Below, piece after piece: positions 18,710-53,882 of a DNA stretch of 64,000 nucleotides (the first letter of the stretch is position 1; each line of letters starts with the position of its first letter). Position numbers and translations under genes: made by a program. Where the stretch lies: assembly GCA_033182465.1 (NCBI GenBank), contig CP137318.1, forward strand, positions 3,906,001-3,970,000, in the 5' to 3' direction. The DNA is from Sanghuangporus weigelae. Lineage: Eukaryota > Basidiomycota > Agaricomycetes > Hymenochaetales > Hymenochaetaceae. The notes beneath the pieces are model-generated. The model ran no database searches and was not told the origin of the DNA. It saw only the letters and a list, made by a program, of their open reading frames with translations.

Positions 18710-19830
18710 ATGCAGCAAGCTACAGAACTCACTCTCAACATTCCTGACCTTTTCTCATCGACGCCTTTCCCCTGGGCGGGATGTAACCCGCTCTATACTC
18801 CCGCTAAAAGAGAATCTACAGAATGGATACTCGGTTACGGATTGTTCTCTGATTATAGGCGGACGCGATTCATGGCGACATACACCGAGTTGCTGGGAGC
18901 ATATGCCTATCCCTACGCCGATGCTAAAGGCCTTCGTATAGCTAGCGACTGGGTGACGCTCCTTGCCGCATGCGACCAGTTTACTGATGAGCAAGACAAA
19001 GACGGGGCCAAGGCAACTCGCGGCGCCTTCATTAGAGCATTACACGACGATACTGAGGTCGACCCTTCACCGATAACATCGCCTACGAAAGAGTGAGTTA
19101 GTCGTCCTGGAATCCTCGGAATCACTTACTGATTTACTTCGAAGTTTTATGGAGAGCATTTTACACATTTCCACTGAGCTGCGCGCACGTTTTGTGTCGC
19201 ACTTGATTCAATACATCGACGGCATCTCCGAGGAGGCCACCCTGCGCACTGATGGTGAATTCCCATCATTTGAAGAGTACATCAAGATGCGTCGTGACAA
19301 TGGCGGTCTCTTCCCGTGCTGCGACATCGTGGAGATCATACTAGGCATCACTTTACCTGCGGAGGTAATTGAGGATGAGTACTTCAAGAAAATCATGGAT
19401 GCAGCCGTTGACATGATGTGCCTGTCAAATGTACAGTATTCGATAGCGATCTCTTTCGTTTCCCTAGTTGACCTTGATCCATGTTTAGGATATCTACTCG
19501 TACGCACTCGAATATGCAAGTGGCCTCGACGGCTGCAACGCTGTTACTATCCTCATGCACAACGAGGGCCTTTCACACCAGGAAGCAATGAACCGTACTG
19601 CACAGCTTTACAAGAATTGTGCCGATCTCATCATAGCCTGCAAGTCGGCGATGCGCTCATTTGGTCCGGAGGTAGATGACATGGTGCGAGCATACCTGTA
19701 TGGGGTGCAGCAGGCGATATGTGGAAATAACTATTGGAGCATGGACACACCCAGGTACTTCGGAGACAATCGCGAGGAAGTGAAACGCACTGGAATCGTG
19801 AAGATCACCCAGCGCAAGTCCTCCGCTTAG
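18710..19830 (+). CDS. Sesquiterpene synthase TPS1
   Basis: Class I terpene cyclase that would convert farnesyl diphosphate to a sesquiterpene with Mg2+ in the cytosol. Three exons give about 337 residues, the usual size. Exon 1 holds FPWAGCNPLYTPAKRESTEW, LLGAYAYPYADAKGLR and LAACDQFTDEQDKD. Exon 2 starts DFMESILHI and ends at MCLSN. Exon 3 continues DIYSYALEYASG, so the joined NDIYSYALE fits the NSE metal motif. The C-terminal TPRYFG supplies the conserved Arg-Tyr pair. The aspartate-rich motif is unusual, DQFTD in place of the DEVTD of its neighbours; the two outer Asp remain. It is on the opposite strand and about 20 kb away from the other three synthases. An ABM-domain gene follows in convergent orientation. 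Confidence 0.9.
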
Positions 19831-27740: not shown

Positions 27741-27852
27741 CAGCTGGGTATCAAAAGTGACCATCACTGTCACACAAAACGTGTGCCGCGTCGTGCGTCG
27801 TCTCACTTTGTCAGTTTCCACTCACTTCCATCCTGCCCCCCTCCCTACTTTC

Positions 27853-37236: not shown

Positions 37237-38538
37237 TCAACTAGCCATAGTTGGCTCTACATGGCGCGGGGAACGTCGAAACACATCCAAGATCCTCGAG
37301 AACCGCCGTCTTCCTCTTCCCTTCCCTCTCTCCCTCCTTCTCTCTCTTCTACTCTCATCACTCTCCACCCCCTCCTCTCCCGCTCCCCCCACCTTCTCCC
37401 TCAACTCCCGCTCCTGTCTCTGCCGCTCCTCCACGCCGATGTTGACATTCCAATGCGCCCTGCCAATGGCATTGTATATCTCCCCGATGCTCGCGTCGCT
37501 CCACGCCAAGTGTGGCGGGAAGGCGCCCGTGATGGGCGTTTCGAAGCTTTGGGAGGAGGTTAGAAGCGGGAGGTGGCCCCGTAGAGCGTGTACGAGCGAG
37601 TAGCGGAAGGAGGGGTTTGTGAGTGGTGAAATGCGAGATTGAGGTTGGGATTGGGATTCCGATGTCGGTTCAAGTGTTGAGTCGGCGCTCGAATTTGTAG
37701 GATGACTCGGGTGAACGAAAACACGATGTCGCCCCGCCACGAACCTCCCGTTCGTGAACTTGGTAAGTGTCTCTCCGACGAGGATACTCGCGTTCAGTCC
37801 GCGCTCGTTCGTCTCGCAGGACACCCACTCGTCGCGCTCTGCGTCCCAGCACTCCAGCCCCGGTGAGTGGCCGAGGACGATCGTTAGGAGGCCGAGGTCT
37901 CTATGCGGTTCTGACACGACTCGAGAGCCAGATGCGGTTGAAGTGGTACCCCCACCTGCCGAAGTAGACTCTCCCGGAGATACTGGCGGAGGTGGCCGAT
38001 CATACCGGAACATCCGCATAAGCGTCGCAACATTCCCTTCTCCCTCTCCAGGCAACTCCAATTGCCTCTCGGACGTACGAACAAGCACGCCAGGACTCAT
38101 ACCCAGACTTTCCTCGATCGCCTGAAGCACATCACGCATGACACCCGCACTCGCCCTCCACGCCTTCTCCGCCCTCCCGCGCAGCGCAAACTCCATCGGG
38201 GTCGTCTGAGCCTTCCTCAGTGCAATCAAACACTTCTCGCCCTCCACGCGCGAATAACCCTCTTCCGAAGTGTTCGTCTCCTTGCGCGCTCCGACGCGGT
38301 ATTTCATACGCTCTTCCTCGGGCAGATCAAAGAACTGCGCGGAAGACTCGAAGAGCGCCGAGAACGCCTCGTACAGAGGGTCCGATTCCGAATAGTTGAT
38401 AGGTAGACTAACCCATCCCTGGGTAGACAGTTTCTCCAGATCAATAGGGTAACTCAGAGTCGTAGATGGCTCGAGGAGAGGTCTAAGCTGCTTTGGAGGC
38501 GGAGAAGCGGGAGGTGCGTATCGTCGACTCGAGCCCAT
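37237..38538 (-). CDS. 2-oxoglutarate/Fe(II)-dependent oxygenase (isopenicillin-N-synthase-like)
   Basis: A single exon of 433 codons, unlike the intron-rich genes around it. The N-terminal DIOX_N-like part has LSYPIDLEKLSTQGWVSLPI and SSAQFFDLPEEERMKYR. The jelly-roll part has VSEPHRDLGLLTIVL, giving the HxD iron ligands, GRFVAGRHRV with the distal His, and RYSLVHALRGH with the Arg for 2-oxoglutarate. The C-terminus has an added highly basic tail (GKGRGRRRFSRILDVFRRSP). It is the apparently intact parent-type copy of the relics at 41819-42745 and 45990-46950; similarity extends into the promoter. It starts the terpene synthase array and may oxidise a terpene, but the substrate is unknown. 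Confidence 0.85.
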   Translation of the reverse strand: MGSSRRYAPPASPPPKQLRPLLEPSTTLSYPIDLEKLSTQGWVSLPINYSESDPLYEAFSALFESSAQFFDLPEEERMKYRVGARKETNTSEEGYSRVEGEKCLIALRKAQTTPMEFALRGRAEKAWRASAGVMRDVLQAIEESLGMSPGVLVRTSERQLELPGEGEGNVATLMRMFRYDRPPPPVSPGESTSAGGGTTSTASGSRVVSEPHRDLGLLTIVLGHSPGLECWDAERDEWVSCETNERGLNASILVGETLTKFTNGRFVAGRHRVFVHPSHPTNSSADSTLEPTSESQSQPQSRISPLTNPSFRYSLVHALRGHLPLLTSSQSFETPITGAFPPHLAWSDASIGEIYNAIGRAHWNVNIGVEERQRQERELREKVGGAGEEGVESDESRRERRRERGKGRGRRRFSRILDVFRRSPRHVEPTMAS

Positions 38539-39988
38539 CGTGGTTCAAGTGAAAGCTGGGTAGCATCGCCTGTGCGTTTCGAGAGGCCTGCTACGCTACG
38601 AGTAGTTGGAGCGCGCAGTAGCTGTGCTGTGGTTAGTACCACACCACGGGTGTTATTAATAAACATTCCACAGCTAGCACGTGAGAGGTTATTTATAGAC
38701 CGCCGCAGTTGGATTTTTAAGGGAAAAGGGTAGACGAAGGGCAATGAAATGAGGACAGTTCGAAAGATGGGGTCAGCAATTGAATCAAACTCGAGTTTGA
38801 GAGTGAAAATCATTTATAAACTTGAACTTACTCGACAACCAGTAGAGTGTCTTGATGACATTCGTGGAGGCAAATAGCAATGTCACCTCAGTGCGAATAT
38901 GTGTCATCTGAATTGCCGATGAAAACCTCGAAAATGAATATCGCTCGGTGAATGGTGCAGACGCCATCTCGCTTCAGGGAAGTGGAATTTCAATCAATGG
39001 CTTCCGAATTCGACACGGTTGAACGTGGTGACTGAGTCAGTGACTCAACTACAGACCGCGTGCGTTCTCACGGTCGCTCCTTGAATCTGAGTGATCGACA
39101 CATGTCGCACTTTTGAAGTTGGGCTCTTCTTGTACAGTACAGCACAAATTCTGAAAAATTGTGTGAAAAATGGTTTAAAGCATACAGAACATGAATCTGT
39201 AATCTGTTTTGCAGAAAATATTCATTTAAGTGTAAAACAGGCTGTTTTTATATAGTATCTCAGGAACGAGAAACATCCTTTCTGAACAAAATGAAGAAAT
39301 ATAAGTCAAATCTTGATTTCAGCAACAAAACTGACCAAAACTGGTGAACTCAGGGAGGAGATAGGAATATGGTCATGGGGAATATCTGTGTTTCCCGGCT
39401 GGATATTTTGTTGTATTTTACAGATAATTATTCCTAACAATCATGCAATCATCTAAGGATGTTTATTTATGCTGTTTTGTTCTGGTAATCAACAAAGGAG
39501 ACATGTCCGTTTTAAATCTGTGCATATGCATCACGTGATCGTACAGCCATCACTGAGACAATTTTATTTTCTTAGAATATACCACAGATTGCCCGAATTT
39601 ACTCGATTTAGAATCTAATTAGGATGATTTATGCATAGCATGGCCCAGAATTGTGCTCTAGAGATGATTTGCTAGCATCTCAAAGTTGTGGTCAGGTCTG
39701 TCCTTCTTAGGAAGTGAGACAGTGAGATCGACGTAAATTACTAAAATAAGACATAATTCAGGCTCCGACGGGTAAAAAAGTTGGCACGCGGAACTCATAT
39801 TGCCTGGCCAGTCCCCAGTCAAATTGAACGTCGTCGTCAGTTTTCATCAAAGAACGATCACGTGTACAAATACTTCCAAACAACATAGAGAACATGTATG
39901 CCTGGTGGTTTCGGTTTCATACTATAGTTCAATTTCAAGAGTTGAGGGTTCAGGCCGATTCATCTCTGCCATGTGTTTGTTACTTCAC
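38539..39988. other. Intergenic, AT-rich, upstream of the oxygenase
   Basis: About 1.45 kb. The first 200 bp resemble the 5' flanks of both oxygenase relics, including a gcacgtgagag run near 38678-38688. From about 39130 to 39780 the sequence is AT-rich and without long reading frames. No gene is supported. Confidence 0.45.
39029..39047. promoter_or_regulatory. Paired AP-1/Gcn4-like sites
   Basis: TGAGTCA (39033-39039) and TGACTCA (39041-39047) lie one base apart about 500 bp upstream of the oxygenase start. Fungal bZIP factors of the Gcn4 type bind such sites. Function here is a guess. Confidence 0.3.
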
Positions 39989-41131
39989 CTACACAATTGG
40001 TTTACGATGACTTGTAATCTTTACCATCCCTTTACGTCTCATCTCATCGGCCTCCTCGGTGAAAAATCAGCGCGTTTCCAGGTTCCAAGCATTATGCCCT
40101 GTGATCCACTGCTCCAACCCATACACATACCCACTGACCATTTCATCGACTTCTGGACCGAAGGAACGCATGGACGCCTTGCACGTCAAAAACGTATCAG
40201 CGCATTTCCTGTAAAGCTTCCCGACTTCGTCGATAGCATCTTGGTGTGAAAGGCCCTGTTCGTGCATGAGAATCGTGATAGCGTTGCAACCATCGAGACC
40301 GTCCGCATACTCTTTCGCATAAGAAAAGATGTCCTAGCCAGAGAAAATCATTAGCGTAAGGTATATTCCACAAGTATGTTTCGGCATTACATTTGCGTAA
40401 CATATCATGTCATTTGCAGCAAGGACCATGCTCTGAAAATTTTCTGTCTTCGAATACCTCGGGGGGAAGTGTAATGCCGAGTACGGCTTCTATGGCGTCA
40501 AAAGCTGGCAAGACTCCGCCATTGCCCCATCGAATGTTGATATTATGATCTTCAAGTGTCTGTATTTCGCCATTCGTGCGATGGCCTGTCTCTCTTGTCG
40601 TGGCGTCCATGTATGCAGTGAAGTGCGAGACAAATTGCCCTAAAACTTCGGCCGAGACTCCCGAGAGGCTCCTTATGTAGCTGCTGAAACAGTTAGCAAA
40701 GAAGGTCCAAATTCAGTTGTTAGACAAAGAACGATAACACACTCTTTCATGAACACTGCTATGGGAGACGTATCATCGATTGACTCGCCCGTCAAGGCTT
40801 TGACAAATGTATGACGGGTGGCCAACGCTTCTTGCTCCCCCTGGGCATCAGTAACTTCGTCTAGTGTGAAGAGGATCGTGAGCACATCAGTAGCGATCCT
40901 CAGGCCATTGGCGTCAGCATAAGGGTAGATGTAGGCGCCTAGCAATTCAGGATGTGTCGCAAGCAGCCGCAAACCTATATGATCAGGAAAGACGCCATGG
41001 CTGAGCATCCATTCTGTCGACTCCCTTTTACTAGGAGAGAAAAGAGGGTTACATCCTGCCCAGTTGAATGGCGTCAAAGATTCGACGTCAGGAAGCTTGA
41101 GTAAGATCTCTGTAGTTTGCTGTGGCTGCAT
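39989..41131 (-). pseudogene. Sesquiterpene synthase TPS2, disrupted
   Basis: Exon 1 is normal: MQPQQTTEILLKLPDVESLT, FNWAGCNPLFSPSKRESTEW, LLGAYIYPYADANGLR, and the canonical LFTLDEVTDAQ metal motif. Exon 2 reads SLSGVSAEVLGQFVSHF and WGNGGVLPAFDAIEAVLGIT, then after FEDRKF one extra T in a T run (near 40439-40442) shifts the frame, so that QSMVLAANDMICYAN is out of frame. Exon 3 has DIFSYAKEYADGLDGCNAIT and then NLETR followed by a TGA at 40067-40069, exactly where its neighbours have the Arg of the RY/RF pair. The same frame continues FFTEEADEMRRKGMVKITS to a stop at 39989. Two independent lesions make this a recent pseudogene. Confidence 0.85.
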
Positions 41132-41818
41132 GAGAGATGTGGATGTTGATGGGGAACTTCTGAGGAATTTAGCACCGAAATTTATACCTTCTGTTAGTAT
41201 GGGCAGATAGCAATCTCTATTCCAAAAGCGAATCGTCATAGCTCGCATTGAGAGGCATGAGACAGGAACCCGACAATTGAATACAGCCTGCGGAACAATC
41301 ATTAGAGTCTGACTGTGCATCGAACAAGATTTCGATGTTCCACAACTGCAATTCTGGTCCTCGACATAAGGATACAATAGTCGATGACCAGGTTGCAGTA
41401 CAGTTGAGCAACAAGAACTTCAACCTCAGTGTGAGGAAATTCTATCAAAACTATGTTTATTAACGAGACGGACCTTCTTTCTTTTCCATGTTTACTTGGT
41501 TTTGCCTTCCCCACGTATTTGGAACTATCAGTGCGCCACTTTCTCAAGAATGTAACTCATCTTTCACTATTTCATAATCCAGAGGTTCTCCGGGGATGAC
41601 ACACAGAACATAGTGAGATTGTGGTCGTGACAGCATAAGATGCTTTGCATGATAGGCTTTGTTTTATAGAGAGACCGGGCTGTGGTGGGGGTCGCTGATG
41701 TATTCGGTCCACGATCTAAGTGTTGCTTTGTTTTGTCAAGAGTCCGGGTTGGGGTGGGGGTCACTGATGTAAAATAATGTTCGCATTGTTCCACCACAAG
41801 GAATGGCGGTTGTAATTG
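41132..41818. other. Intergenic with a small tandem repeat
   Basis: TTTATA at 41181-41186 on the plus strand is the TPS2 TATA box. A 47-bp unit containing gtgggggtc(g/a)ctgatgta occurs twice, at about 41656-41702 and 41725-41771. No gene is recognised. Confidence 0.45.
41181..41186 (-). promoter_or_regulatory. TATA box of TPS2
   Basis: On the minus strand ggtataaatttcgg lies about 50 bp before the TPS2 start, at the same place as in the other synthases. Confidence 0.55.
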
Positions 41819-42745
41819 CTAAGAAAATTGGAGTATACCGTTATCCCGCAGGGTGTGCATTGGAGAAAGAGTTACGTTGACCAGATACTGATAGGGTAAG
41901 GCAAGGATCTTGACTTCAGACTTCAAGAGGTGCCTCCCGACCACAAACCCATAATTCAAAAGCTTCGTGACTATCTGTCCGATATGACTGGCTGTCTTCA
42001 ATGCACATTCATTCACCTTGTATGATATCCATTCATGACGTTCAGCTTCAGACCTCTATGAGGTTTTGGCACGTCTCGGACTTCCTTCTGATTTGGAGTC
42101 TGGAGAGGACACTGGTAAAGGCGGCCGGTCATAATGGAACACTTGTAGAATTATTACGACATACCTTCCACTCTCCGCAGGTATCTGTAACTGGTTCTCC
42201 GACGCATGGACAGTCGCATCGGTACTCATACCCAGACCTTTCTCAATTACGTCTAGCACATTACGCATAACATCCTCACTCGCTTTCCAAGCCTTCTCCG
42301 TCCCCTCACGTGGCTCAAATTTCGTCGATGTAATCTGGACCTTCTTCAGCGTAATCAGGCGCCTCTCATTCTCTATGCGCAGATAATCCTCCTCCGAAGG
42401 GTTTCTATTCCTTGCGCGATATGACTTGATGCGACGCGGTAATTCATCTGCTCGTCCTCGGGTAGATCAAAGAACCGTACGGAAGATTCAACGAGCGCCG
42501 AGAACGCCACATAAAGAAAGAATCACTGATGAGTGGACTAAGTCATCCCCGCGCGGATACTCGAGGTCATCACGGATGAGGTGAAAAAATGCTTAGCGTC
42601 GCCTGCATTTCGAGCGGCTTCCTACACGTTGGACGCAGCAGCTCTGCTGTTATTACCACGAGTCTCCGAGAGTCAATAATAAGCATCCATTGTTCCAAAG
42701 CACGTGAGAGCGTTTTGTATGACTGTCTGTGGTCTCCGGCAATGA
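41819..42745 (-). pseudogene. Relic of the 2-oxoglutarate/Fe(II) oxygenase, copy 2
   Basis: Aligns with the intact oxygenase at 37237-38538 and with its 5' flank. Recognisable pieces are KAWKASEDVMRNVLDVIEKG, GLGMSTDATVHASENQLQIP, VFHYDRPPLPVS and NYGFVVGRHL. The frame is broken several times. The HRD iron-ligand motif is now HRG, and about 16 residues after it are missing. The start region is broken and has no ATG equivalent. Not expected to encode an enzyme. Confidence 0.8.
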
Positions 42746-44422
42746 ACAAGGACTTGAATAGTTAGTTATAGAATGCTCGTTTCTGTTCCCGGAAATAACA
42801 GGTCTTGAAGAGTCGGAGAGGTATATCTAGAAAAACACGCAGAGTCGTAGAGAGACGAAGGCAGGCTCTAAAGTCATTGTAAGATGGTGTCGGCTCGGAT
42901 TAATATTAGACTTGAGAAAACGAGAAGACATATTTCGATAAACCTACTCAACGACCCGTTCTTATTTCATCATTTCTCTCCATCGTTGAGCGTCTTGAAT
43001 GGTCCATAAAAGCATCTAGATTAGCATTGGAGGTATTGGCCGTTGCCAAATCGTGCTGCAGCACGAGTGTACGTTATCTTTAAGGGCCCCGAAAAGAGGC
43101 AAAGACAGTAAGTCGATTCGCCTATCGGGAAGGCAACTTCTCTCTGGGAGACGATTGATTTGTAAGTGCACACAAAGTTTAGAGTCTAAATGATGACTGT
43201 GAGGAAACAACAGCCCTTTTTCCCGGTAGTCAAGATTTTACTCGGATATTTCACGCCTGGGATCACGTGCAATATTCCACGCAGCACGCCAAGTAAGGAC
43301 CAAACATTCCTCGTTCACCTTCGAGTCCATCCTGTTCAACCCAGTACTACAATCCAGACGCACAACTTACTATAATTGTTAAGGAAGCGCCGATTATAGT
43401 TAAGGAAGCGCCACGTCAATGCGAAAAATCTTATCACTCTTCTTGTCATCAAAAATGTGACTATGATGCAGCTATCAGTGAATCTTACAATAAATGCGTA
43501 CGCACTCTCCGTGAGACGCATCGAAGCAAGTATTTTTATCGGTCATCTTACTTATTCGAAGCTTAACACCATTTGCATTAGTGAGTCACATTTAACGGAT
43601 ACATACGGACAAAAACTGTTGTGCCTATCCTTCCGGCATGAGAAAACCATCGTCCATCCATTACTTCAATCTGTATCTCGTTCGTGACTCTGCCCTGAAG
43701 TCTTACTGAATATCTCTTTCTGGTGCAGCAGGGGAAACTTCTGTAGGTGACTCTTGCGCCCTCTCATTGACATCATAGTTACTTACCTTATCAAGGTGCC
43801 TATGTTCAATCCGCGGTATACCGTACAATTGTGCTCATGAAGCTGATCCATCCAAGGTGCATTCCTGTCTGGTTTTCTTGGCAATCATTTCAGAAGGTTG
43901 AAAGTCAGTAATCTTTCGATTGGATCATTGCGTCGAAGCGTGTCTTCTGAACTGGAGAAACTAGGTGGACTTGAAAAGAGGAGCTGTGCTACAGAGGGAC
44001 ATTGACTATTCGTCCCATCCAGTGATATTATTTGTACAATCATGGTAACCTTTTACAGCTTCGGTTCCAACAGACCGGAAGTGCAGATGATCTCATCGGG
44101 TCGGTTTTACAGCATCGAATTACTTGTCCTTTGCTCCAGTAGCGATTCGATCAACCGGAAACTGTGGAAGCACATATGATCCGGACAAGGCCATTGGAAT
44201 AAATCGTTACTCTCTCAGTCTTTATCAGGAATAGTCCGATTCTCCGATGTTACCAAACAATCTTGCATTTTCCTTGAAGACTTGCATCAGAGGAATAAAC
44301 GTGTCTCCGTGTCTCTACTGGATCGATATCAATACTAATTCTCTATAATTCAATTTCTAGGCACAACACCAATTTATATGACGCAGGAATTGTTACATAT
44401 TACCTGTATATCTCAAAAACAC
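42746..44422. other. Intergenic, no recognised gene
   Basis: About 1.7 kb without a supported gene. A 14-bp unit gttaaggaagcgcc occurs twice at about 43379-43411. The remaining short frames are not conserved with anything I recognise. Confidence 0.4.
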
Positions 44423-45550
44423 TCACGCCGCCCTTATGGCCTTGCGCTGGCTAATCTTCACGATACCAGTACTATTCACCTCCTTACTCTTATCACCAAA
44501 GAACCTCATCGTCTCCAGCTGCCAGACGTTATAACCAGTGATCCACTGCTCCAAAGCCCAGATGTACTTGCGAATCATTTCGTCGGTCTCTGCATCGAAT
44601 GAGCGCAGGGCTTGTTTGGAAAATATCATATCGTCACAGCGTTGCTTGTAGAGCCTGCCGGCACGATCGATGGCTGCTTGTTGAGAAAGACCGTTGCCAT
44701 GCATGAAAGATGAAACTGCATTGCAGAAATCGTTGCCGCTTGCATACTCTATTTTGTAAGAGTATATATCCTATGCTAATACTAGTAAGTAATAATTTGG
44801 ACAAATACACTCCTAGCGAAAAGTAAATGATGAACACACACATTAAACATGCATATGATGTCGATTGCGGCAAGAACGATGCTCTGGAAATCATTGTCCT
44901 CGAGAACTCCTGCGGGGAGCGTGAATCCAAGCGCAAACTCCACCATCTCGAAGGCGGGAAAAAGGCCACCATTTTGGCGGCGCAGCTGGACATAATCTTC
45001 GAAGGATGGCATCTGGCGGGTCACGCGTAGACTGGCCTCTCTTGCTGTTGCATCAATGTAATCGATGCAGTGCGTCAAGAAACGTGTACGAAGATCCTCT
45101 GAGGCGCTTGAGAAGCGCTCCAGAAAACTGCAATATTGATCAGTTCTTTGTTTGCAGAACGGGATAGAGGTGATCGTACTCTTTCGTGAACAATGTGATC
45201 GGAGAGGCGTCGTCTCCTGATCTGCCAGACAGAACATTGGCGAAAATATCACGAGTGGCTTTCGCCTCGTCTGCACTCTGATCATCGGTGACTTCATCGA
45301 GCGTGAAAAGGATTGCAATATAGTCAGAAACAAGATGGAGGCTCTTGGGATCAGCGTAAGGGTACGTATATGCCACGAATTTGTCGGGATTTGCCTTTAT
45401 CAGCGAGGCACGCTTATTTCCAGAGAGGACGCCATAGCTGAGCATCCAGTCTGTGGCCTCTGTGTTTGAGCGAGAGTAGTGCGGGTTGCACCCGACCCAG
45501 GTGAATGGAGTCAGAGAATCCATGTCGGGGAGTTTGACAGTGTGTTCCAT
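44423..45550 (-). CDS. Sesquiterpene synthase TPS3
   Basis: Cyclises farnesyl diphosphate; the cyclase appears intact. Exon 1: MEHTVKLPDMDSLTPFTWVG, CNPHYSRSNTEATDWMLSYG, VAYTYPYADPKSLH and LFTLDEVTDDQ with the DEVTD metal motif. Exon 2 begins FLERFSSASEDLRTRF and ends IVLAAIDIICMFN. Exon 3 begins DIYSYKIEYASG, so the joined NDIYSYKIE is the NSE motif. LETMRFFG near the C-terminus supplies the Arg-Phe form of the RY pair, and the protein ends SQRKAIRAA. The length (about 330 residues) is normal and both introns have GT..AG ends. Relics of an oxygenase lie upstream (45990-46950) and beyond the next intergenic region downstream. Confidence 0.9.
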
Positions 45551-45989
45551 AGCTTGACGGGCAGTACGAATGTAGGCAGATGGAAGTCCATGAAGGCCGA
45601 GTTCAGTATCTTTTATACAGCGGAATCTGCGGATAAGATTGCTCCACAGCGGACATCTAATAGCATTCTGACAGGTTTTTTCAAGCTTCGCTGCTATATG
45701 TTCAGTCAAAATTACACTGTGTTTGAATTTGGAAGATAACCAGCTGGGTTTCAGAACTTACGAGAGAGATGGAGAAGGACGATTCAAGATTTCTGGCCCA
45801 AATCCCTGAAGATCCCTGCTAAACGTGGACAAGCCAATGCAGTCACCACCTTTAAGACAAATTTATCAGGGTGGCGTCATTACGCATGTATTCTGAGGCA
45901 GCTCAGCTTTGAGATATTGGTGATCCGCTACTGTTGGAAGCGAATAACCCAGAATCAGTCATCAGCAAAAAGACCCGCGGCTTGTCATG
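45551..45989. other. Intergenic, TPS3 promoter side
   Basis: Contains the TPS3 TATA box and about 370 bp of spacer up to the oxygenase relic. No other gene is seen. Confidence 0.45.
45611..45617 (-). promoter_or_regulatory. TATA box of TPS3
   Basis: On the minus strand ctgtataaaagatac lies about 60 bp before the start codon, as in the other synthases. Confidence 0.6.
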
Positions 45990-46950
45990 GCTTGCGGAGA
46001 TGCCTCCCAAACACGAGTATCCAATTTGAAAACTTTGTCGGCATCTGTCCGACATGGACAGTTGACTTCAATACACGTTCAATCACCTTATGCAATATGC
46101 AATCGTGGCGTTGTGCTTCGCAGCGATTGAAACCTGGTGAACGGCTTATGACTGTCGTCAAGATGCTGAGGCCTTTTCAAGGTTTTGATACAACTAGATC
46201 TTTCTTCTGACTTGGAGTCCGTCAAAGACACTGGTAAAGGCAATCAGCCATACTGGAACACTTGTAAAGTTATTACAACATACACACCGGACAAAAAAAG
46301 TATTTCGTACCTTCTGGAATTTGGTCGGGATGCAGAAAACGAACCATGATTTGGCCGATTTCACGTTTCCGACTGAAGTTCTAGAAAGTCTTGAGTATAT
46401 TTACTTAGTGTGTATTACTTACCTTCCGCCCTCTGAAGGTGGTTCTCTGGTGCAAGGACAAGTGCACCGGCACTCATTCCCAGACTTTCCTCGATTACCT
46501 CTAGTAAATTACGCATATCACCTTCACTCGCTCTACAAACCTTCTCAGTCCTCTCACGTAACTCAAATTCTGTCGATGTAATCAGAATCTTCTTCGGTGT
46601 AATTAGCCACCTCTCATCCTCTATGCGCAAATAACCCTTCCCCGAAATGTTTTCCTTCTTTGCGCGGTACGAGATGGCATCTCATCCGTTTTTCCTCGGG
46701 AACTGCCTGGAAGACGTGAAGAACGCAGACGATGCCTCATAAAAAGGGTCTGATTTCAAATCATTAATGGGCAGCTGCAGAAGCAGGAGACCCATACCGT
46801 TGACATGAGCCCATCGTGGCTCAAGTGAAAGCTATGTAGCATTGCCTGTGTTTCGAGCGGAATTCTGTGAGTCACAGTACGCCATAGCCGTGCCTTTGCC
46901 ACGGCGGGTGGGTGTGATTAGTAAATATTTACCATTTCGACGCATATGAA
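45990..46950 (-). pseudogene. Relic of the 2-oxoglutarate/Fe(II) oxygenase, copy 3
   Basis: Aligns with the intact oxygenase at 37237-38538. Clear parts are RIEDERWLITPKKILITSTE, RERTEKVCRASEGDMRNLLE and VIEESLGMSAGALVLAPENH, equal to the AEKAWRASAGVMRDVL region of the parent. The 5' flank also matches (gtagcattgcctgtgtttcgag). Towards the 3' end only patches remain (for example around 46010-46080). Multiple frame breaks and missing iron-ligand blocks rule out function. Confidence 0.75.
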
Positions 46951-47479
46951 CGTCTAACTGTAGAAATGCAAATCTCTGCTCCTTGACAGTGAACAAGACT
47001 TATGAGCCAGAAAGGCGAATCGAAGCAGGAGTGTTAGTCATAAGGAGGTCTTGATCATAGTTCCTGGAGGGCCGAAAAATGTTGACGACTTGAATTAATT
47101 TAAAGGCAAAAGACCAAACTTGGCCGACCGCCCTTAAAAGCTATTATCTGGCCGCAAGCATCTGGAGAACCAAGAGGCAGAGATATCTTGAACTTGTTGG
47201 CTTGTTTGCCTTTATGTGAGCTCGAATACATTATGATGAATCCGTTGTTGGAGAACCTGCAAATAGGCAATGAGAGCGATACCCCACCCGAGAAGCATTG
47301 AATGTGCTGCAATTCGTAATGCAAATCGGGAAGTCAAAACGGCATTCAGACTTTGCATGCAATTTGAGTGAGTGCTAAGGAAGGAACAGCCGCATCAGGA
47401 AAAGGCCGCATGCATATGGCTTTCGACGTCAAGCTCCACATACTGTAGTCAGAAGCGAGACCCTTGTAACCAGGGTCCA
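46951..47479. other. Intergenic
   Basis: No recognised gene or repeat. Confidence 0.4.
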
Positions 47480-47650
47480 GCACGGGTATACGTATACGCC
47501 ATGAGCGAGCTTGTCGGGACATATCTTGATCAGCGAGGTACGTTTGTTACCAGAGGAAGCCATAGATGAGCATCCAGTCTATAGCATCTGTGTTAGACTA
47601 GTGAGGCGTGCACCCGACCCAGGTGAATAGAGCCATGTCATGTCGGCTGC
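47480..47650 (-). pseudogene. Terpene synthase relic A (exon 1 fragment)
   Basis: The sequence aligns with exon 1 of TPS3 around the region coding for CNPHYSRSN..TDWMLSYG..KANPDKFVAY: shared runs include gagcatccagtct, gcacccgacccaggtgaat and gatcagcgaggyacg. Frame breaks and small deletions are present. Only this piece of about 170 bp survives, directly downstream of TPS4. Confidence 0.65.
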
Positions 47651-47962
47651 GTTTGGCTTACGTAACTGATAACAGACGTGTAAGCTCTGTCTTTTAAAAC
47701 TGAAATCAGGTTAAACTTTTTGTCTCGAGTCCGAAACAGTTTCTTGAGGCGGTATGTGAGCTTTTCGGCGTCCGTTAAGAATGGTGCAAGTTGAATGCAA
47801 ATATCCGGATAGTAGAAATGGTAATGAAAGCCCTAACACAAGATCGGTTGAAATAATAACAAAATTTACGGCAAGGTACTACTATCTAACTTGCAATGTA
47901 ATAGGTCGATCATCAAAAACCGTGGAGAAAAAGAGGACGCGTATCTATTTTATTTATGCTAC
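47651..47962. other. Intergenic
   Basis: 3' flank of TPS4 and spacer to relic A. No gene. Confidence 0.4.
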
Positions 47963-49091
47963 CTATTCAGTAGATTTCCGCCAGTTGAATCTCACCACAC
48001 TCGTGCGTATCACCTCCTCTGTCTCCTCTCCAAAGAACCTCCGTGTAAGCAAGCTCCAAGAATTGTGACCACAGATCCACTGTTCCAGCCCATGTACGTA
48101 ATTATAGGCGAGTTCATCGACGTAGGGACCAAACGAACGCATGGCCGCTTTGCATGCCACAATAGTATCGGCGCAATCTTTATACAGTTCCCCGACCTCA
48201 TCGATAGCTTCTTGGTGCGAAAGTCCCTTGCTATGCATCAATATCGTAATGGAATTGCAGCTTTCGACGCCGTCCATGACCTCTTTTGCGTATGAGTATA
48301 TATCCTAGTCAGTATTCAAGATAATGAGTAAATAATTTGATAGATAACGATCTTGACGTACATTCGAGTAAGAAATCATGTCGTTTGCAGCCAGAACAAT
48401 GCTCTGGAAGTTGCTGTCGACGAATACCTCTGGAGGCAGCGTGATCCCGAGTGCGACTTCAATGATATCAAAAGTTGAGAAGAGTCCGCCGTTGTCCCGT
48501 CGAAGGCGAAGATGCTCTTCAAAACTAGGTATCTTGCCATCTGTACGATTACCGGCTTCTCTTACGGTAGCGTCGATGTACTCGACAAAGTGTGCGATAA
48601 ATCGTTTTAATAGTTCATTCGAAACACCTGATAAACTAAACGGCTCATAAAGCTGTCATGCAAGTCATTAAACATCGTCGAGATAACAAGTGTGATAAAA
48701 TAGCATACTCTCTCGTGAGTATTGCTATAGGGGATATATCGTCATTTGATTCGCCCGTCAAGGCCTTGACGAATGTATCGCGGGTGGCCAAAGCCTCCTT
48801 CGTGTCTTGGTCATCGGTGACCTCGTCCAGCGCGAACAGAATCGTGAGGAAATCGGTAGCGATATGCAGGCCATTGATGTCAGCATAGGGATACACGTAT
48901 GCACCTAGCAGCTCGGTCTGCGTTGCCACTAATTGAGCTTGCTTAGCGTTGGATAGGACGCCATGGTTGCCCATCCATTTTGTAGACTCCCTATCGATGC
49001 AGGAGTAGAGTGGGTTACAGCCAATCCATGGAAATGGTGTGAGGGAGATGAGGTCTGGGATTTTGAATACGATCTCTTTTGTTCGCTGCAT
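47963..49091 (-). CDS. Sesquiterpene synthase TPS4, with a 5-bp duplication at exon 2
   Basis: Exon 1: MQRTKEIVFKIPDLISLTPF, FPWIGCNPLYSCIDRESTKW, LLGAYVYPYADINGLH and LFALDEVTDDQ. Exon 2: LSGVSNELLKRFIAHFVEYI, GKIPSFEEHLRLRRDNGGLF and IVLAANDMISYSN. Exon 3: DIYSYAKEVMDG, giving NDIYSYAKE, then CNSITILMHSKGLSHQEAID, LLTRRFFGEETEEV and the end FNWRKSTE. All catalytic motifs are present. At the start of exon 2 TAAAC is doubled (48632-48641, plus strand). With the acceptor used by its paralogues the frame would be lost after FMSRL. An acceptor created by the duplication (gtttag, minus strand) restores the frame with loss of four residues. The gene is thus either a pseudogene or a slightly shortened enzyme. 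Confidence 0.8.
48632..48641. repeat. Tandem 5-bp duplication in TPS4
   Basis: TAAACTAAAC on the plus strand (GTTTAGTTTA on the minus). Removing one unit restores the reading DFMSRLSGVSNELLKRF, the same length as DFMESILHISTELRARF in TPS1. Confidence 0.8.
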
Positions 49092-50323
49092 GAGTTTGGT
49101 GACTGAAGATGGATTTTGCGATGAAGTTCATGCCATCTTTTATACCCTCAAAATGCGGATAAGATGAGTCCTCCATCTCTTAGATGCCTACCTGACAACG
49201 GCGTCTTGAAACAGACGGCATTCCGTAGCCCAGAATGAGTAGTCCTGCTAGACAGATATGATCCAATTTTTGCAGAGCAATTTGACTGTTTCATACGTAT
49301 TCACGCCCAAAACATTTCGAAGTCTTGCAAATGAAGGACTTCGTCAGCCCCAAACCAATCGAAATAGTCAGTTTTTTTTGACTATTCCGGTCCGCAGAGT
49401 CTTCGGAGATCTATGCTTCTGACAGTTCCGTGATGTTGCGGTTCTATCTCGGGCGCCAACGGGGGGGAATGCACGTTCAAGACAAAGACCAGTATCAGAT
49501 GCGACGTCGTCGGATTCATGACTTTGGACGCTGGTGAAAAAAGGACGCACGCCACACTTACTATAATCACCATCATGTTCCGTCGGTATCGCACGGCGAG
49601 TTTACCGGGACGTATGTCACGATCAACGAGTAACAAGGACTTGGACCAGGAAGTCGCATTACCTGGGCGGAATGATTCAAATCACATGCTGACGAGCAGC
49701 GCTACAGCTGCGGAAAAACAGAATCTGTCTCATAGCCGACGGTGTCCAGCGTACAGAGTCAGAAAACAATCAGGATAGGTATTGAATAAAAGAGAAGTTC
49801 AACATGCAGTGACAGCACTGGGTAGGCTGTAGTTCAATTCAGGATAGAGTCGACGCGCGCTGAAAAATTAGCATAGATGAGAAGCGCATCCAAGTCATTA
49901 CTTGAATTGGCCGAAACACGATGGACACTGTGGCGCCCGTATCGAATCGTCCGAGGTATTCGTGAAGGAAAGCTCTCAGCTCAGACTCAGCCAAGCTTCC
50001 TGTTGTCCTGTCCGAATACGGATAGTCTATATTATAAATAAACAATACAATGACGTAAGCAGGGTTTCCGATTTTTTTCTCGCAACGTTCCGTTCAGCTC
50101 TTAGCATCCCCACCGTCAATATGCTGACTATGTTATTTCTTTCGATACTCAATAGCACGGATAACGCAACATCCTTGCACTTCTTTTTCGGAGAATGAAG
50201 AGCTTCACAGATTCGCGAATCACAAGATAGGCTAATGAATGCTCGTCCACTCAGAAATTAGGTCCTGTGGGAACGGGGGAAGGAGGGTCATTCATTTATG
50301 GTTATATCTGAAATCTATCGACG
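49092..50323. other. Intergenic, unrecognised open frames
   Basis: The first 60 bp hold the TPS4 TATA box. Between 49370 and 50045 several frames of 60-86 codons are open on both strands, one of them hydrophobic on the minus strand (RRNMMVIIVSVACVLF). They could be exons of a small or decaying gene, but I could not join them into anything familiar. Confidence 0.35.
49138..49144 (-). promoter_or_regulatory. TATA box of TPS4
   Basis: On the minus strand gggtataaaagatgg lies about 50 bp before the start codon, matching the other synthases. Confidence 0.6.
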
Positions 50324-51447
50324 TCAAAAAACTGCGCCTGCGGCAAGTAGCTCTTTTGCGTAATCTTCCAGAGTTCTGAGTTCTTCTCCCAGATCTGGAT
50401 AAAGCTCTTTAGCATCCAATGCACCACCATACTCCTCCTTCTTAGCATTCTCTACAGTGTTATCCCCGCGAATCCAGAGGCTATATACGTAATCGGCCGA
50501 ATTTCTTTCTGTATCAGCTCCGTGGTGAAGCAAGTCGAGTCGCTCTTCCTCGCTAAAAGTTCCGATATCGATTTTGTGGCCAAATACACGTTCAGCGATA
50601 GCGAACAACTCGTTCTGCGTCACTTCTTGCACCCAGCAGAAGACATATCGGTTTAGCGTACGCTCATCAACGATAATGCGCGCAACGAATTTGCCAATGT
50701 CACGAGAATCAGTAACAGCGCATTTGACGTCTCCTGTACCGAAGCGGCTCCCGTAGGTTCTTATGAGCCTCGGATACGGTACCTTGGCTTTGTCTATGAG
50801 GTGCATGAATGGAGGTGACAACTGCATCCTGATTTGGTGCAGTGCAATCAATTTAATCATGGAAGGCGATGCTGAGTGAAGGAAGGCACTTACCACCAGC
50901 CGACATCAATAAAGGTATATCCGATTCCACTCTCTTTGACATAGTCACGAATGACGAGTTTCTGCACGAAACGTGATTGTAACGATTCGCATCTTTCTCG
51001 GGGCTATCAGAGGACTTACCTCGTCGCCTAGCTTTCTAACCCCACGGATACTGGGAATAGCCCAATCGTCTGGGATGAATCGCTTGACGCCAGCTTTCTT
51101 GCATGCATCCACGAGCACCTTCTGGCGAAGTATTTCTGTGATGTAGATTGTCGAGATGACGATGTCTACTCCCTGAAACGGTTCCGCGATCTGGTCGACG
51201 GTCCAATTCTCTGGGTCCAGGATGCGAATTTCGACGCCTCGGGACTTGAAATCTCCGACTTGAGGCTTGGATGTCGATGAGGGACGAACGGCAGCTATGA
51301 CGTGCTGTGTGGACCAATGTGAATGACGGGGACAGATCATAAACATTTGGGACGAACGAAATTACCGCTGTCCTCCAGGAGTCCATTGACAATGGACGAG
51401 CCGGTTATTCCTGTAGCACCAATGATAAGAACAGACTGCTTGGCCAT
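50324..51447 (-). CDS. NmrA-like / isoflavone-reductase-like NAD(P)-binding protein
   Basis: Atypical SDR with a Rossmann fold. The start exon MAKQSVLIIGATGITGSSIV has the GxTGxxG cofactor motif. After an intron following EDSGNF comes HVIAAVRPSSTSKPQVGDFK, GVEIRILDP, FQGVDIVISTIYI, LVDACKKAGVKRFIPDDWAI, a short exon KLVIRDYVKESGIGYTFIDV ending GWW, and then MQLSPPFMHLIDKA. The C-terminal half has GDVKCAVTDSRDIGKFVARI and a helical end ELRTLEDYAKELLAAGAVF. FIP(S/D).(W/F) and DIGKFVARI are typical of the NmrA family, which includes reductases of lignans and flavonoids and redox-sensing regulators. The protein looks complete. It lies inside the synthase array and shares its strand, so a biosynthetic role is possible. 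Confidence 0.88.
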
Positions 51448-51849
51448 AATGTTTAATAGTCGTCGAGCGTGTAATGACATCGTATTTATTTTATATGCTA
51501 TTTTTTGTATGACTAAAAGCAATTGCACTCGCTTATAATTATTGATGTTGCTTTATTCAGCATGTATGTACTTCGCGACCCTTCACCTTCTAACGTTTTG
51601 ACTAATCCCACCTGACGAGCTCTTCTTTTTTTAGACAGAATATAATGTAGGACAAGGTCGAGGAGCACACGAGTTTATTTAATAAATTCTAAGCTTTCAG
51701 GCGGTGAAAGAGCTCATGAAAATATTTGATGTACAATCTGCGCAAGCTATTCCGATGAACTTCTCAGTCTCAGTATACGATAAAGACCAATTTACATGCA
51801 TAACTAGGCGTAAAAATCGCATCACTCGATCATCTAGCATCTGGACTGC
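51448..51849. other. Intergenic
   Basis: Promoter side of the NmrA-like gene; AT-rich. No gene. Confidence 0.45.
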
Positions 51850-52190
51850 TCACGCCGCCCTACGGGTACTGCGCTAAGTAACCTTTGCTATACCAGTACT
51901 ATTCATCTCCTTACTCTTATCATCAAAGAACCTCGCCGTCTCCAACTTCCGGGCGTTATGCTTGCCGATCCACTGCTCCAGCGCCCGGACGTACTTACGA
52001 ACGAACCATTTCGTCAGCCTCTTCACCGAATAAATCCAAGGTGTGCAGACATTATACTGTGTTGTTGCTTTATTACGTCAATGGCAGCAAAGGCGATGTT
52101 CTGGAAGTGATCAGTCGGAGAGAGAATTGTCCGTCTGGGGTGAAGAAAGCCAAGGCAGTAAACAAGAGCAAATAAGGACGGACGCGTTTC
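51850..52190 (-). pseudogene. Terpene synthase relic B (3' fragment with internal deletion)
   Basis: The sequence aligns first with the last exon of TPS3 (shared runs such as cagtactattcatctcctta, gatccactgctccag and acgtacttacgaa), then jumps near 52035 to sequence that matches the end of TPS3 exon 2 (atggcagcaaaggcgatgtt ctggaa). The intervening NSE exon part is missing. No frame survives. Confidence 0.7.
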
Positions 52191-52479
52191 AACAACGGGA
52201 TGTGTATCCTTTCTCTCATCCCAACCAAACACTTACCTCGACGATGTGGTATATGTGTGTTCAATATTTCTTTGAATTTACTGTTGTTGTTCAATTCATA
52301 TGTATCGCGTTAGGTGCACACGATGGTTTTTACCACCTGTAATCTTACCTTTACCAACGGCGCCTCCGTATTTCTTGGCGGTCTTTCTTATCTCGATGTT
52401 CCTTCATGCAAGACCATGGTCCATCCATCTTTCTCGTCCATAGCTGAGACTCAAGACTTATTGAGTTTATCGTTAACGA
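52191..52479. other. Intergenic
   Basis: No supported gene. A plus-strand frame from 52314 overlaps the following hypothetical frame and is less protein-like. Confidence 0.35.
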
Positions 52480-53296
52480 ATGAACAGCTTTTACTGCATG
52501 ATGCTCTTGACTGCGCTTTTCACTTCGTCATGTTACTGGCAAGCCGTTCCGATCGACTCGCCGCTCAGTCGGCCAGTGGGGAGCGCAACGACATTAAGGG
52601 AGGCGATATTGGCGAATTCGTCTTTACCTGATACCTCAGCCCTTAAAAGTCAGGATCCATGTTCGTCCCTTTCAGCGAATTTGGAGCTAAAACCATTGAA
52701 CGGGAGTACGAAACTGGATGGGCTCCTCCCACCGGCGATTCAGCCCCTGGATAGGTGCTGGTGTAACATCTTCTCGCGGAGTGGGCTGTTCGAGCCGACA
52801 GACGTGAGCCGATGGGAGATGGAGAATGTGTTGGTTGCGAGGAACGCTATCGAGATCCGCGCAAAGAATACTGCAGAGAGGAATAGCGAGTGTCTCTCGG
52901 GCGGGGAGGAATCGACGGAGGAGGTTGGATCCAGTGAAGGGCCAACTAGTGTGGATGGTAATGTGGAAGATGCCGATGGAGGCTCATCGTTCTCCCTCCG
53001 TGGCCTGCGCGAGCTGTTATTCCCAACTGCCTCGCCAGCACAAACCCTCATCCCAACCTTTACCCTCCGTGGCCAGTCTGTCCGAACCAACATTAACCCC
53101 CTTCGAGGAACCAGACGTCCACGAGTCGCATCATGCTGACCCTGAAGCGTCCCCCATAACCGACTTCTCAATCTCACCAACACCGACGCATCGCTTGAAG
53201 CTGTTGCGGCCGTATTACGACCTCCGATCGTACGGCATCGACATCACGCTCGACTTTCACTGGGATCGAAATGCGCATACACAGACGAACTCATGA
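52480..53296 (+). CDS. Hypothetical acidic protein, possibly frameshifted fragment
   Basis: A 219-codon frame (52480-53139) runs MNSFYCMMLLTALFTSSCYW through an acidic, Ser-rich stretch (GGEESTEEVGSSEGPTSVDG). Near 53085 a second frame becomes more protein-like and continues SEPTLTPFEEPDVHESHHAD to YYDLRSYGIDITLDFHWDRN at 53296. That suggests either one frameshift in a decaying gene or two unrelated open frames. I do not recognise the protein. It lies between two terpene synthase relics and could itself be a fragment. Confidence 0.3.
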
Positions 53297-53402
53297 CCTC
53301 TTTTTCTGGGTTTCTCATGTCCTCGTGTAAAGGCAAAGATCAAGAATTGACGTATTTTTATCCATATTAGCATGCGTTCTCCATCTGTCAAGCAATAAGA
53401 AT

Positions 53403-53818
53403 TTATAACACTAATCTAAATGCTCTATTGCCATTGCGCGGACCTGAGAGAAGTGCTACCGGGGCGACGCAGGACCGCATTACATCAAGACATGTTCTTC
53501 TTGAAGCCATCAACGACCAAGAGATTCTCAGGCAAGCTATTGGGGGGGGGGGGGGCTTCAGTACGCAGGCCAGATAGAAAATCCTGTGCTCTTTTGTGAA
53601 CAATGTAATTGGAGGTGCGTCGTCTCCGCAGTTGCCGGTCAGAGTTTTAGTAAAAGCATAGTCGACAGCAAGGCAGAGACTCTTGGGATCAGCGTAGGGA
53701 TGCGTATAGGCCCCAAGACACTCGGGGCTGGTCTTGATAAGAGTAGCGAGGGTTACACCCAATCCAAGTGAATGGAGTCAGAGACACAATATGAGGAAGC
53801 TCGACAATGTGTTCCATG
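53403..53818 (-). pseudogene. Terpene synthase relic C (exon 1 with deletions)
   Basis: On the minus strand it begins MEHIVELPHIVSLTPFTWIG, nearly the same as TPS3, then has a deletion with frame change. It continues LIKTSPECLGAYTHPYADPK, SLCLAVDY directly joined to FTKTLTGNCGDDAPPITLF and TKE. Compared with TPS3, about 25 residues are missing at that joint, including the whole DEVTD metal motif. A run of 14 G lies at 53542-53555. The TATA box is still present upstream (53876-53882). Not functional as a cyclase. Confidence 0.75.
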
Positions 53819-53875
53819 AATTTCCAGGTAGCAGACATAACTGTTGATGGATCTCTGTCAGAGAAATCGAGAGGC

Positions 53876-53882
53876 TTTTATA
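53876..53882 (-). promoter_or_regulatory. TATA box retained by relic C
   Basis: On the minus strand ggtataaaagcctc lies about 60 bp before the start codon of the broken copy, in the same position as in the intact synthases. Confidence 0.5.

What the first reader, a model, noticed from the sequence alone, without database searches (positions are those of the whole stretch)
37237..53882. Serial duplication array of sesquiterpene synthases with co-duplicated, decaying 2OG oxygenases
Seen in the sequence: on one strand, in order, an intact oxygenase, TPS2, oxygenase relic, TPS3, oxygenase relic, synthase relic, TPS4, NmrA-like gene, and two more synthase relics. The oxygenase relics resemble the intact gene in coding region and in promoter. 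Known: agaricomycetes have many sesquiterpene synthases, sometimes in clusters with oxidases. Inferred: a TPS plus oxygenase unit was copied several times, and the oxygenase partner was lost while a synthase was kept or kept longer. Such an array with its failed copies still in place is a good record of birth-and-death evolution of a natural-product locus.
Basis: partly seen in the sequence, partly recalled or inferred. Interest (0 to 1): 0.75.

Follow-up and report, generated by a model that had tools for sequence, protein, structure and literature searches.

The report
Decaying terpene-synthase array in a mushroom
A fungal chromosome, probably of a medicinal mushroom, holds a row of related sesquiterpene-synthase genes in several states of decay, with two broken copies of an oxygenase gene that share the same breaks; this is an ordinary kind of gene birth and death, recorded in unusual detail.

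Summary
The array is real. In the held genome (33.87 Mb, 13 contigs; probably Sanghuangporus weigelae, inferred from assembly size) the close relatives of these synthases lie on one contig within about 50 kb, and the oxygenase O1 matches only its two relics at E up to 0.001. Corrections: (1) the last two "synthase relics" are one pseudogene split by a 1.36 kb insert; (2) TPS2 is not intact (stop plus frameshift) but died recently; TPS4 is open only with a shifted splice acceptor; TPS3 alone is plainly intact inside the interval; (3) the oxygenase relics share two frame-breaking indels and the same 3' limit, so these breaks have one origin and were copied, not suffered separately; (4) at most one joint duplication of synthase plus oxygenase is supported, [TPS3–O2] with [relic A–O3]. 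Its support is the synthase tree, gene order and equal third-position divergence. Spacer homology beyond the oxygenase promoter is weak. The oxygenase relics are also a mosaic: O2 and O3 are sisters in the 3' two thirds but not in the 5' third, so gene conversion between relics is a serious rival to copying a corpse. Tandem sesquiterpene synthases are common in basidiomycetes (25.4%, PMC10210940): new member of a known kind.

The parts
37237..38538 (-). O1, intact single-exon 2-oxoglutarate/Fe(II) oxygenase-like gene, 433 aa
   Evidence: Open frame; PF03171 23.6 bits against a 23.0 cut-off, PF14226 24.5 below its 27.3 cut-off; codon model gives omega 0.26-0.27 on its branch
39995..41131 (-). 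TPS2, three-exon sesquiterpene synthase-like gene with a stop at 40069 and a frameshift near 40448; recent pseudogene
   Evidence: Spliced alignment; branch omega 0.22, omega=1 rejected
41915..42650 (-). O2, oxygenase relic, homologous to O1 up to residue 271, five frameshifts in the alignment
42679..42931 (-). Upstream region of O2, homologous to that of O3 (46884-47121) and of O1
   Evidence: 0 of 500 shuffles reach the score
44423..45550 (-). TPS3, intact three-exon sesquiterpene synthase, 334 aa
   Evidence: Open spliced model with the array's two introns; PF19086; closest solved relative AcCop4 E 2.4e-66
45985..46880 (-). O3, oxygenase relic sharing +1 and -26 indels and 3' limit with O2; own 129-base insertion and stops
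46884..47121 (-). Upstream region of O3, homologous to that of O2 and O1; homology further out to 47391 is weak
   Evidence: inner 0 of 500; outer 31 of 500 shuffles reach the score
47445..47627 (-). Synthase relic A, codons 16-77 only, with a stop and frameshifts, closest to TPS3
47963..49091 (-). TPS4, three-exon synthase; frame kept only with a shifted acceptor at exon 2
   Evidence: branch omega 0.16, omega=1 rejected
50324..51450 (-). NmrA-like gene inside the array (ends approximate); no copy in the self-comparison
   Evidence: PF05368 on two ORFs
51853..52113 (-). Synthase relic B, C-terminal part: codons 270-334 at 51853-52051, weak extension to 52113 (E 0.0017)
52170..53525 (.). Insert between the two parts of relic B; second copy at C1:4131720-4133104, 85% over 1395 aligned positions
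53557..53817 (-). Synthase relic B, N-terminal part (codons 1-135) with two internal gaps of 23-24 codons, one removing the aspartate-rich motif
18719..19824 (+). TPS1, open three-exon member of the same group, opposite strand (ends approximate)

Best explanation
This is a local birth-and-death array of sesquiterpene synthases related to AcCop4. Shown: an old synthase radiation confined to one locus (TPS1 to TPS5, relics A and B), with relics released from constraint, and two oxygenase relics that carry the same breaks. Inferred: an oxygenase copy next to the ancestor of TPS3 lost its 3' part and its frame, and the block [synthase, dead oxygenase] was then duplicated in tandem, giving TPS3-O2 and relicA-O3; later gene conversion may have blurred the 5' third. 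In the relic A copy most of the synthase was then lost. Relic B decayed on its own line and holds an unrelated insert. TPS2 has died recently. O1 is an oxygenase still under constraint; which synthase it served is unresolved.
For: O1 as query finds only O1, O2 and O3 (5 matches, 8 candidates scored, E up to 0.001). Matches to TPS3 above 100 bits all lie at this locus. TPS3+relicA+relicB: ultrafast bootstrap 99 (nucleotides) and 97 (protein) with three outgroups, 88 with one; attachment of either relic to TPS1, TPS2, TPS4, TPS5 or the TPS2-TPS4 stem rejected, AU p at most 0.0017 in 10 of 10 trees. O2 and O3 share +1 and -26 indels and the 3' limit. In the 3' two thirds O2-O3 distance is 0.329 against 0.487 and 0.543 to O1. 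Third-position divergence O2-O3 0.343 (n=201), TPS3-relicA 0.339 (n=56). Synthase-relic omega 0.54 against 0.19 background, 2dlnL 11.0; omega=1 not rejected (2.65).
Against: The oxygenase alignment is a mosaic: O2 and O3 are not sisters in the 5' 214 columns (O2-O3 0.490, O1-O2 0.413, O1-O3 0.397), and the change point is reached by 22 of 5000 permutations; gene conversion could have spread the shared indels. The spacer homology that first looked like proof of a joint unit (0 of 300) is carried by the oxygenase promoter; the outer part alone is weak (31 of 500, or 9 of 500 against a stretch chosen afterwards). TPS3-relicA exclusive sisterhood is not significant against orders with relic B (AU p 0.22), and a relic next to the outgroup branch is not excluded (p 0.086, 0.24). 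Relic A has 56 aligned codons. Oxygenase-relic omega is 0.64 and omega=1 is marginally rejected (2dlnL 4.1). No homology upstream of relic A to the TPS3 upstream region.
Confidence: 0.55

Rival explanations
1. Gene conversion: O2 and O3 arose as separate copies of an O1-like gene, and a later conversion tract over the 3' two thirds made them alike and spread the +1 and -26 breaks from one to the other.
For: Mosaic with a change point near O1 38253, O2 42382, O3 46630, reached by 22 of 5000 permutations; the 5' third is star-like (branches O1 0.160, O2 0.253, O3 0.237). Promoters: O1-O2 and O1-O3 score further above shuffles (z 10.9, 9.8) than O2-O3 (z 6.6). The -26 break lies inside the 3' tract.
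Against: The +1 break lies about 30 ungapped columns on the 5' side of the best change point, so the tract would have to reach beyond it. TPS3-relicA kinship and equal third-position divergence come for free with a joint duplication. Stronger constraint on the 5' part of O1 would shorten the O1 branch there without conversion.
Confidence: 0.28
2. One reading: a synthase-oxygenase unit was copied several times and the oxygenase decayed independently in each copy.
For: Regular order and strand; O2 and O3 also carry many lesions of their own; the three oxygenase promoters are homologous; star-like 5' third.
Against: Two shared frame-breaking indels and a shared 3' limit; TPS2-O1 spacer matches neither other spacer (95 of 300 and 57 of 150 shuffles reach the score); O1-O2 divergence at third positions is lower than TPS2-TPS3.
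Confidence: 0.1
3. Assembly artefact or allelic copies placed in tandem.
For: None found.
Against: Aligned pieces are about 60-81% identical and each copy has its own indels; artefacts give near-identical copies.
Confidence: 0.01

Closest known systems
Tandem sesquiterpene cyclase repeats of Basidiomycota (survey PMC10210940, passages seen)
   Same: Neighbouring same-group synthase genes; the survey reports 25.4% of such genes in tandem and names loss of function as one fate.
   Different: Here failed copies and broken oxygenase copies are still readable; the survey's main text has 0 occurrences of 'pseudogen'.
AcCop4 (PDB 8gr5, 8gr7), terpene synthase
   Same: Best solved relative of TPS3, E 2.4e-66, residues 6-329.
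   Different: Sequence relation only; products of the array enzymes are unknown.
2-oxoglutarate-dependent dioxygenase TropC (PDB 6xjj)
   Same: Only solved relative of O1 at E up to 0.01, over residues 211-276.
   Different: Weak (26.8 bits) and partial; no functional inference.

Membership tests
Terpene synthase family 2 (PF19086), sesquiterpene synthase | Profile match over the curated cut-off | tested here: met
   16 exon-level matches in the genome, among them exons of TPS1, TPS2, TPS3, TPS4 and TPS5
Terpene synthase family 2 (PF19086), sesquiterpene synthase | Aspartate-rich DDxxD-like and NDxxSxxxE motifs | tested here: met
   TPS3 model reads DEVTD, and NDIYSYKIE across the second intron, by eye; motif names recalled
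Terpene synthase family 2 (PF19086), sesquiterpene synthase | Converts farnesyl diphosphate to a sesquiterpene | not testable with these tools
   No assay
2OG-Fe(II) oxygenase superfamily (PF03171) | Profile match over the curated cut-off | tested here: met
   O1 23.6 bits against 23.0, marginal; N-terminal PF14226 falls short, 24.5 against 27.3
2OG-Fe(II) oxygenase superfamily (PF03171) | HxD...H iron triad and RxS co-substrate motif | tested here: inconclusive
Birth-and-death tandem array | Copies closer to each other than to genes elsewhere in the genome | tested here: met
   one search does not exclude relics next to the outgroup branch
Birth-and-death tandem array | Some copies non-functional and released from constraint | tested here: met
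   Synthase-relic omega 0.54 against 0.19; omega=1 not rejected
Serial co-duplication of one synthase-oxygenase unit | Synthase and oxygenase kinship and spacers agree for every unit | tested here: not met
   Kinship and timing agree for TPS3-O2 and relicA-O3, the spacer beyond the promoter only weakly; no agreement for TPS2-O1

The most novel reading that the evidence does not exclude
A pathway's tailoring gene died first and was then carried and copied as a passenger by a synthase that kept duplicating, while the surviving oxygenase O1 stayed under constraint even as the nearest synthase TPS2 broke; the locus would show selection acting on synthase copy number, not on the synthase-oxygenase unit.
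Probability: 0.3. Interest if true: 0.4.

Novelty: new member of a known kind. Interest (0 to 1): 0.3.

Why it matters
It is a readable, within-locus record of how a natural-product locus gains and loses genes. It also warns that a relic beside each array member does not prove repeated independent loss: shared breaks here point to one loss that was copied by duplication or conversion. It supplies corrected gene models (TPS2 dead, relic B one gene, TPS4 splice question) for a probable medicinal mushroom genome.

Tried and rejected
Spacer as proof of a joint unit: I first took the homology of the relicA-O3 and TPS3-O2 spacers as proof that synthase and oxygenase were copied together. Split in two, the oxygenase-proximal part carries it (0 of 500 shuffles reach the score) and the outer part is weak (31 of 500; 9 of 500 against a matched stretch chosen after seeing the alignment).

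Methylation-driven decay of the relics: CpG observed/expected is 1.12 (O2) and 0.90 (O3) against 1.05 for the window; relic A (0.83), relic B N-part (0.72) and the relicA-O3 spacer (0.78) are lower but short. CpG to TpG/CpA change from O1 to O2 and O3 (23 of 75, 33 of 84) is like that between TPS2, TPS3 and TPS4 (0.29-0.39), so no special signature.

More hidden relics: DNA profiles over 114 kb around the locus find only O1, O2, O3 and the synthase pieces listed; three further hits are below the inclusion threshold. Spliced scans of four further stretches (49.1-50.35, 42.5-44.43, 53.8-56.0, 56-60 kb) scored 74.5 to 100.5, taken as noise; the relic pieces scored 172 to 181.5 under the same penalties.

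Flank homology: of 42 comparisons only relicA-O3 against TPS3-O2 passed z 4. Four others narrowly beat their 60 shuffles and were not followed up: TPS2-upstream/relicB-upstream (z 3.3), TPS3-upstream/TPS4-upstream (2.8), TPS2-downstream/TPS5-downstream (2.8), TPS4-downstream/relicB-downstream (2.6).

Transposon nature of the relic B insert: two copies in the genome search and no Pfam match at E up to 0.01 for the two ORFs tested, so not shown to be a transposon. The synthase profile finds nothing around the second copy.

Rows dropped: the C9 synthase was aligned but left out of the trees, and the weak C2 match was aligned only.
Full report
Setting. The window is C1:3906001-3970000 of a genome of 33,870,148 bases in 13 contigs; C1 is 4,491,666 bases. 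A published Sanghuangporus weigelae assembly has 13 contigs, longest 4.49 Mb, total 33.96 Mb (PMC10803629, passages seen). I infer that species or a close relative; the totals differ by about 0.09 Mb and I could not check it by sequence.

What is there. Self-comparison of 36-56 kb gives 17 non-self matches at E up to 1e-4. Spliced alignment shows that TPS1 to TPS5 share two introns, phase 2 and phase 0. TPS3 is fully open; TPS1 and TPS5 have no stop in the 329 and 324 aligned codons, their exact ends being unchecked. TPS2 has a stop at 40069 and a frameshift at about 40448 in an AAAATTTT run. TPS4 is out of frame at the start of exon 2 with the homologous acceptor, but in frame with one 17 bases downstream (my reading). 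Relic A keeps codons 16-77. The pieces at 53557-53817 and 51853-52051 hold codons 1-135 (with two gaps) and 270-334 of one gene, relic B, with a weak extension of the second to 52113. Between them lies an insert, 52170-53525; the genome search finds one other copy, C1:4131720-4133104, 85% identical over 1395 aligned positions.

Where the relatives are. The PF19086 search gives 16 exon-level matches on C1, C2, C3, C7, C8 and C9. With TPS3 as query there are 27 matches at E up to 0.1; the twelve above 100 bits all lie at this locus and the best elsewhere is C7 at 95.8 bits. O1 as query gives five matches at E up to 0.001, all O1, O2 or O3, although the wider PF03171 family has 17 matches in the genome, O1 included. 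The tool scores only the best candidates, so counts are lower bounds.

Synthase tree. With nucleotides and three outgroups (C3, C7, C8) TPS3, relic A and relic B group at 98.4/99 (SH-aLRT/ultrafast bootstrap) and TPS2 with TPS4 at 99/99; with protein 98/97 and 97.1/95; with one outgroup 86.7/88 for the TPS3 group. Tested alone with C7, relic A joins TPS3 at 93.1/94 and relic B at 62.5/79. Trees attaching relic A or relic B to TPS1, TPS2, TPS4, TPS5 or the TPS2-TPS4 stem are rejected (10 of 10, AU p at most 0.0017). A position next to the outgroup branch is not rejected (p 0.086 and 0.24), and the order within the TPS3 group is open (p 0.22).

The oxygenase copies. On 672 ungapped columns O1-O2 differ at 34.5%, O1-O3 at 36.2%, O2-O3 at 29.6%; branch lengths are O1 0.29 (95% 0.241-0.349), O2 0.173, O3 0.204. 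O1 is under constraint (omega 0.26 with relics fixed at 1; 2dlnL 28.4 against all at 1; 196 codons), so a long O1 branch points to a root on the O1 side. O2 and O3 share a one-base gain (O2 42413, O3 46661) and a 26-base lack (O2 42080, O3 46199) against O1; the two do not compensate in frame. A further lack of about 72 bases near the 5' end is shared but has different edges, and I do not count it. In the frameshift-tolerant alignment both stop matching O1 at residue 271. Each has lesions of its own.

The mosaic. The picture is not uniform. In the 5' 214 columns distances are O1-O2 0.413, O1-O3 0.397, O2-O3 0.490; in the 3' 458 columns 0.487, 0.543, 0.329. The change point, near O1 38253, is reached by 22 of 5000 permutations. 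The +1 break lies about 30 columns on its 5' side, the -26 break well inside the 3' part. The promoters agree with the 5' part: z 10.9 (O1-O2), 9.8 (O1-O3), 6.6 (O2-O3). Either O1 is more constrained in its 5' part, or gene conversion has acted. Under both, the shared breaks have one origin; which route spread them is open.

The copied unit. If the unit runs from a synthase to its downstream oxygenase, the pairs are TPS3-O2 and relicA-O3. Third-position divergence is 0.343 for O2-O3 and 0.339 for TPS3-relicA (56 codons), and the synthase tree agrees. The spacers align over 0.5 kb (47391-46884 with 43215-42679; 0 of 300 shuffles), but mainly in the oxygenase-proximal part (0 of 500); the outer part alone is weak (31 of 500). 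If the outer part is real, about 2.1 kb of the TPS3 counterpart is missing beside relic A, a deletion I can only suggest. The opposite pairing, oxygenase then synthase, shows no spacer homology (275 of 300 shuffles reach the score), but that region holds no oxygenase promoter, so the contrast is not decisive.

What does not fit the serial-unit model. The TPS2-O1 spacer, tested without the first 80 bases before O1, resembles neither other spacer (95 of 300 and 57 of 150 shuffles reach the scores). Third-position divergence is 0.434 for O1-O2 (n=212) and 0.463 for O1-O3 (n=229), against 0.602 for TPS2-TPS3 (n=329) and 0.523 for TPS2-TPS4 (n=327). So O1 split from the relics after TPS2 and TPS3 had split, if rates are comparable and conversion has not reset the clock.

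Selection. In a codon model on seven sequences the synthase-relic branches have omega 0.54 against 0.19 for the rest (2dlnL 11.0), and omega=1 is not rejected (2.65). TPS2 (0.22) and TPS4 (0.16) terminal branches are constrained, omega=1 rejected (11.8 and 27.0). So TPS2 died recently and TPS4 is alive or very recently dead. TPS3 alone is estimated at 0.47, not different from the rest (2dlnL 1.2). The oxygenase relics have omega 0.64 and omega=1 is marginally rejected (4.1), which tells against a fully neutral history after their split.

Known context. A survey found 25.4% of basidiomycete sesquiterpene cyclase genes in tandem, 85% of these within one clade (PMC10210940, passages). The S. weigelae genome paper reports nine terpene synthase clusters (PMC10803629, passages); PMC12001456 (passages) treats another synthase, AncA; PMC9020118 (passages) reports 20 sesquiterpene synthases in Inonotus obliquus. 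Searches listed no paper whose title or opening abstract describes this array; I read no whole paper and no supplements, so I do not claim it is unpublished.

Verdict. A real, well-preserved birth-and-death array; new member of a known kind. Its instructive point is that the two broken oxygenases share their breaks, so the loss was copied, probably with the synthase block, possibly by conversion.

Noticed in passing
G000 C1:3975724-3976002 (window scale about 69.7-70.0 kb): A cytochrome P450 exon lies about 1.9 kb downstream of TPS5 on the same strand, a possible tailoring partner of the array.
   Followed up: no
52170-53525 and L041 1501-2885: Two-copy segment of 1.36 kb with a 279-aa ORF in the distant copy, interrupted in the window copy; a run of 14 G lies just beyond its end at 53542-53555.
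   Followed up: partly
27637-30425: Tc1/mariner-like transposase remains (HTH and DDE_3 domains) with CpG observed/expected 0.69, the lowest of the window features measured.
   Followed up: no
46290-46418: O3 carries a 129-base insertion that O1 and O2 lack; GTAAGT stands at its start, like a 5' splice site, but no matching acceptor end is evident.
   Followed up: no
TPS3 and TPS4 C-terminal ends: The C-terminal RY pair seen in TPS1 and TPS5 reads RF in TPS3 and TPS4; the role of the pair is recalled, not tested.
   Followed up: no
G000 C1:3904745-3905005: Another 2OG oxygenase exon lies about 1 kb left of the window; the O1 search did not list it at E up to 0.001.
   Followed up: no
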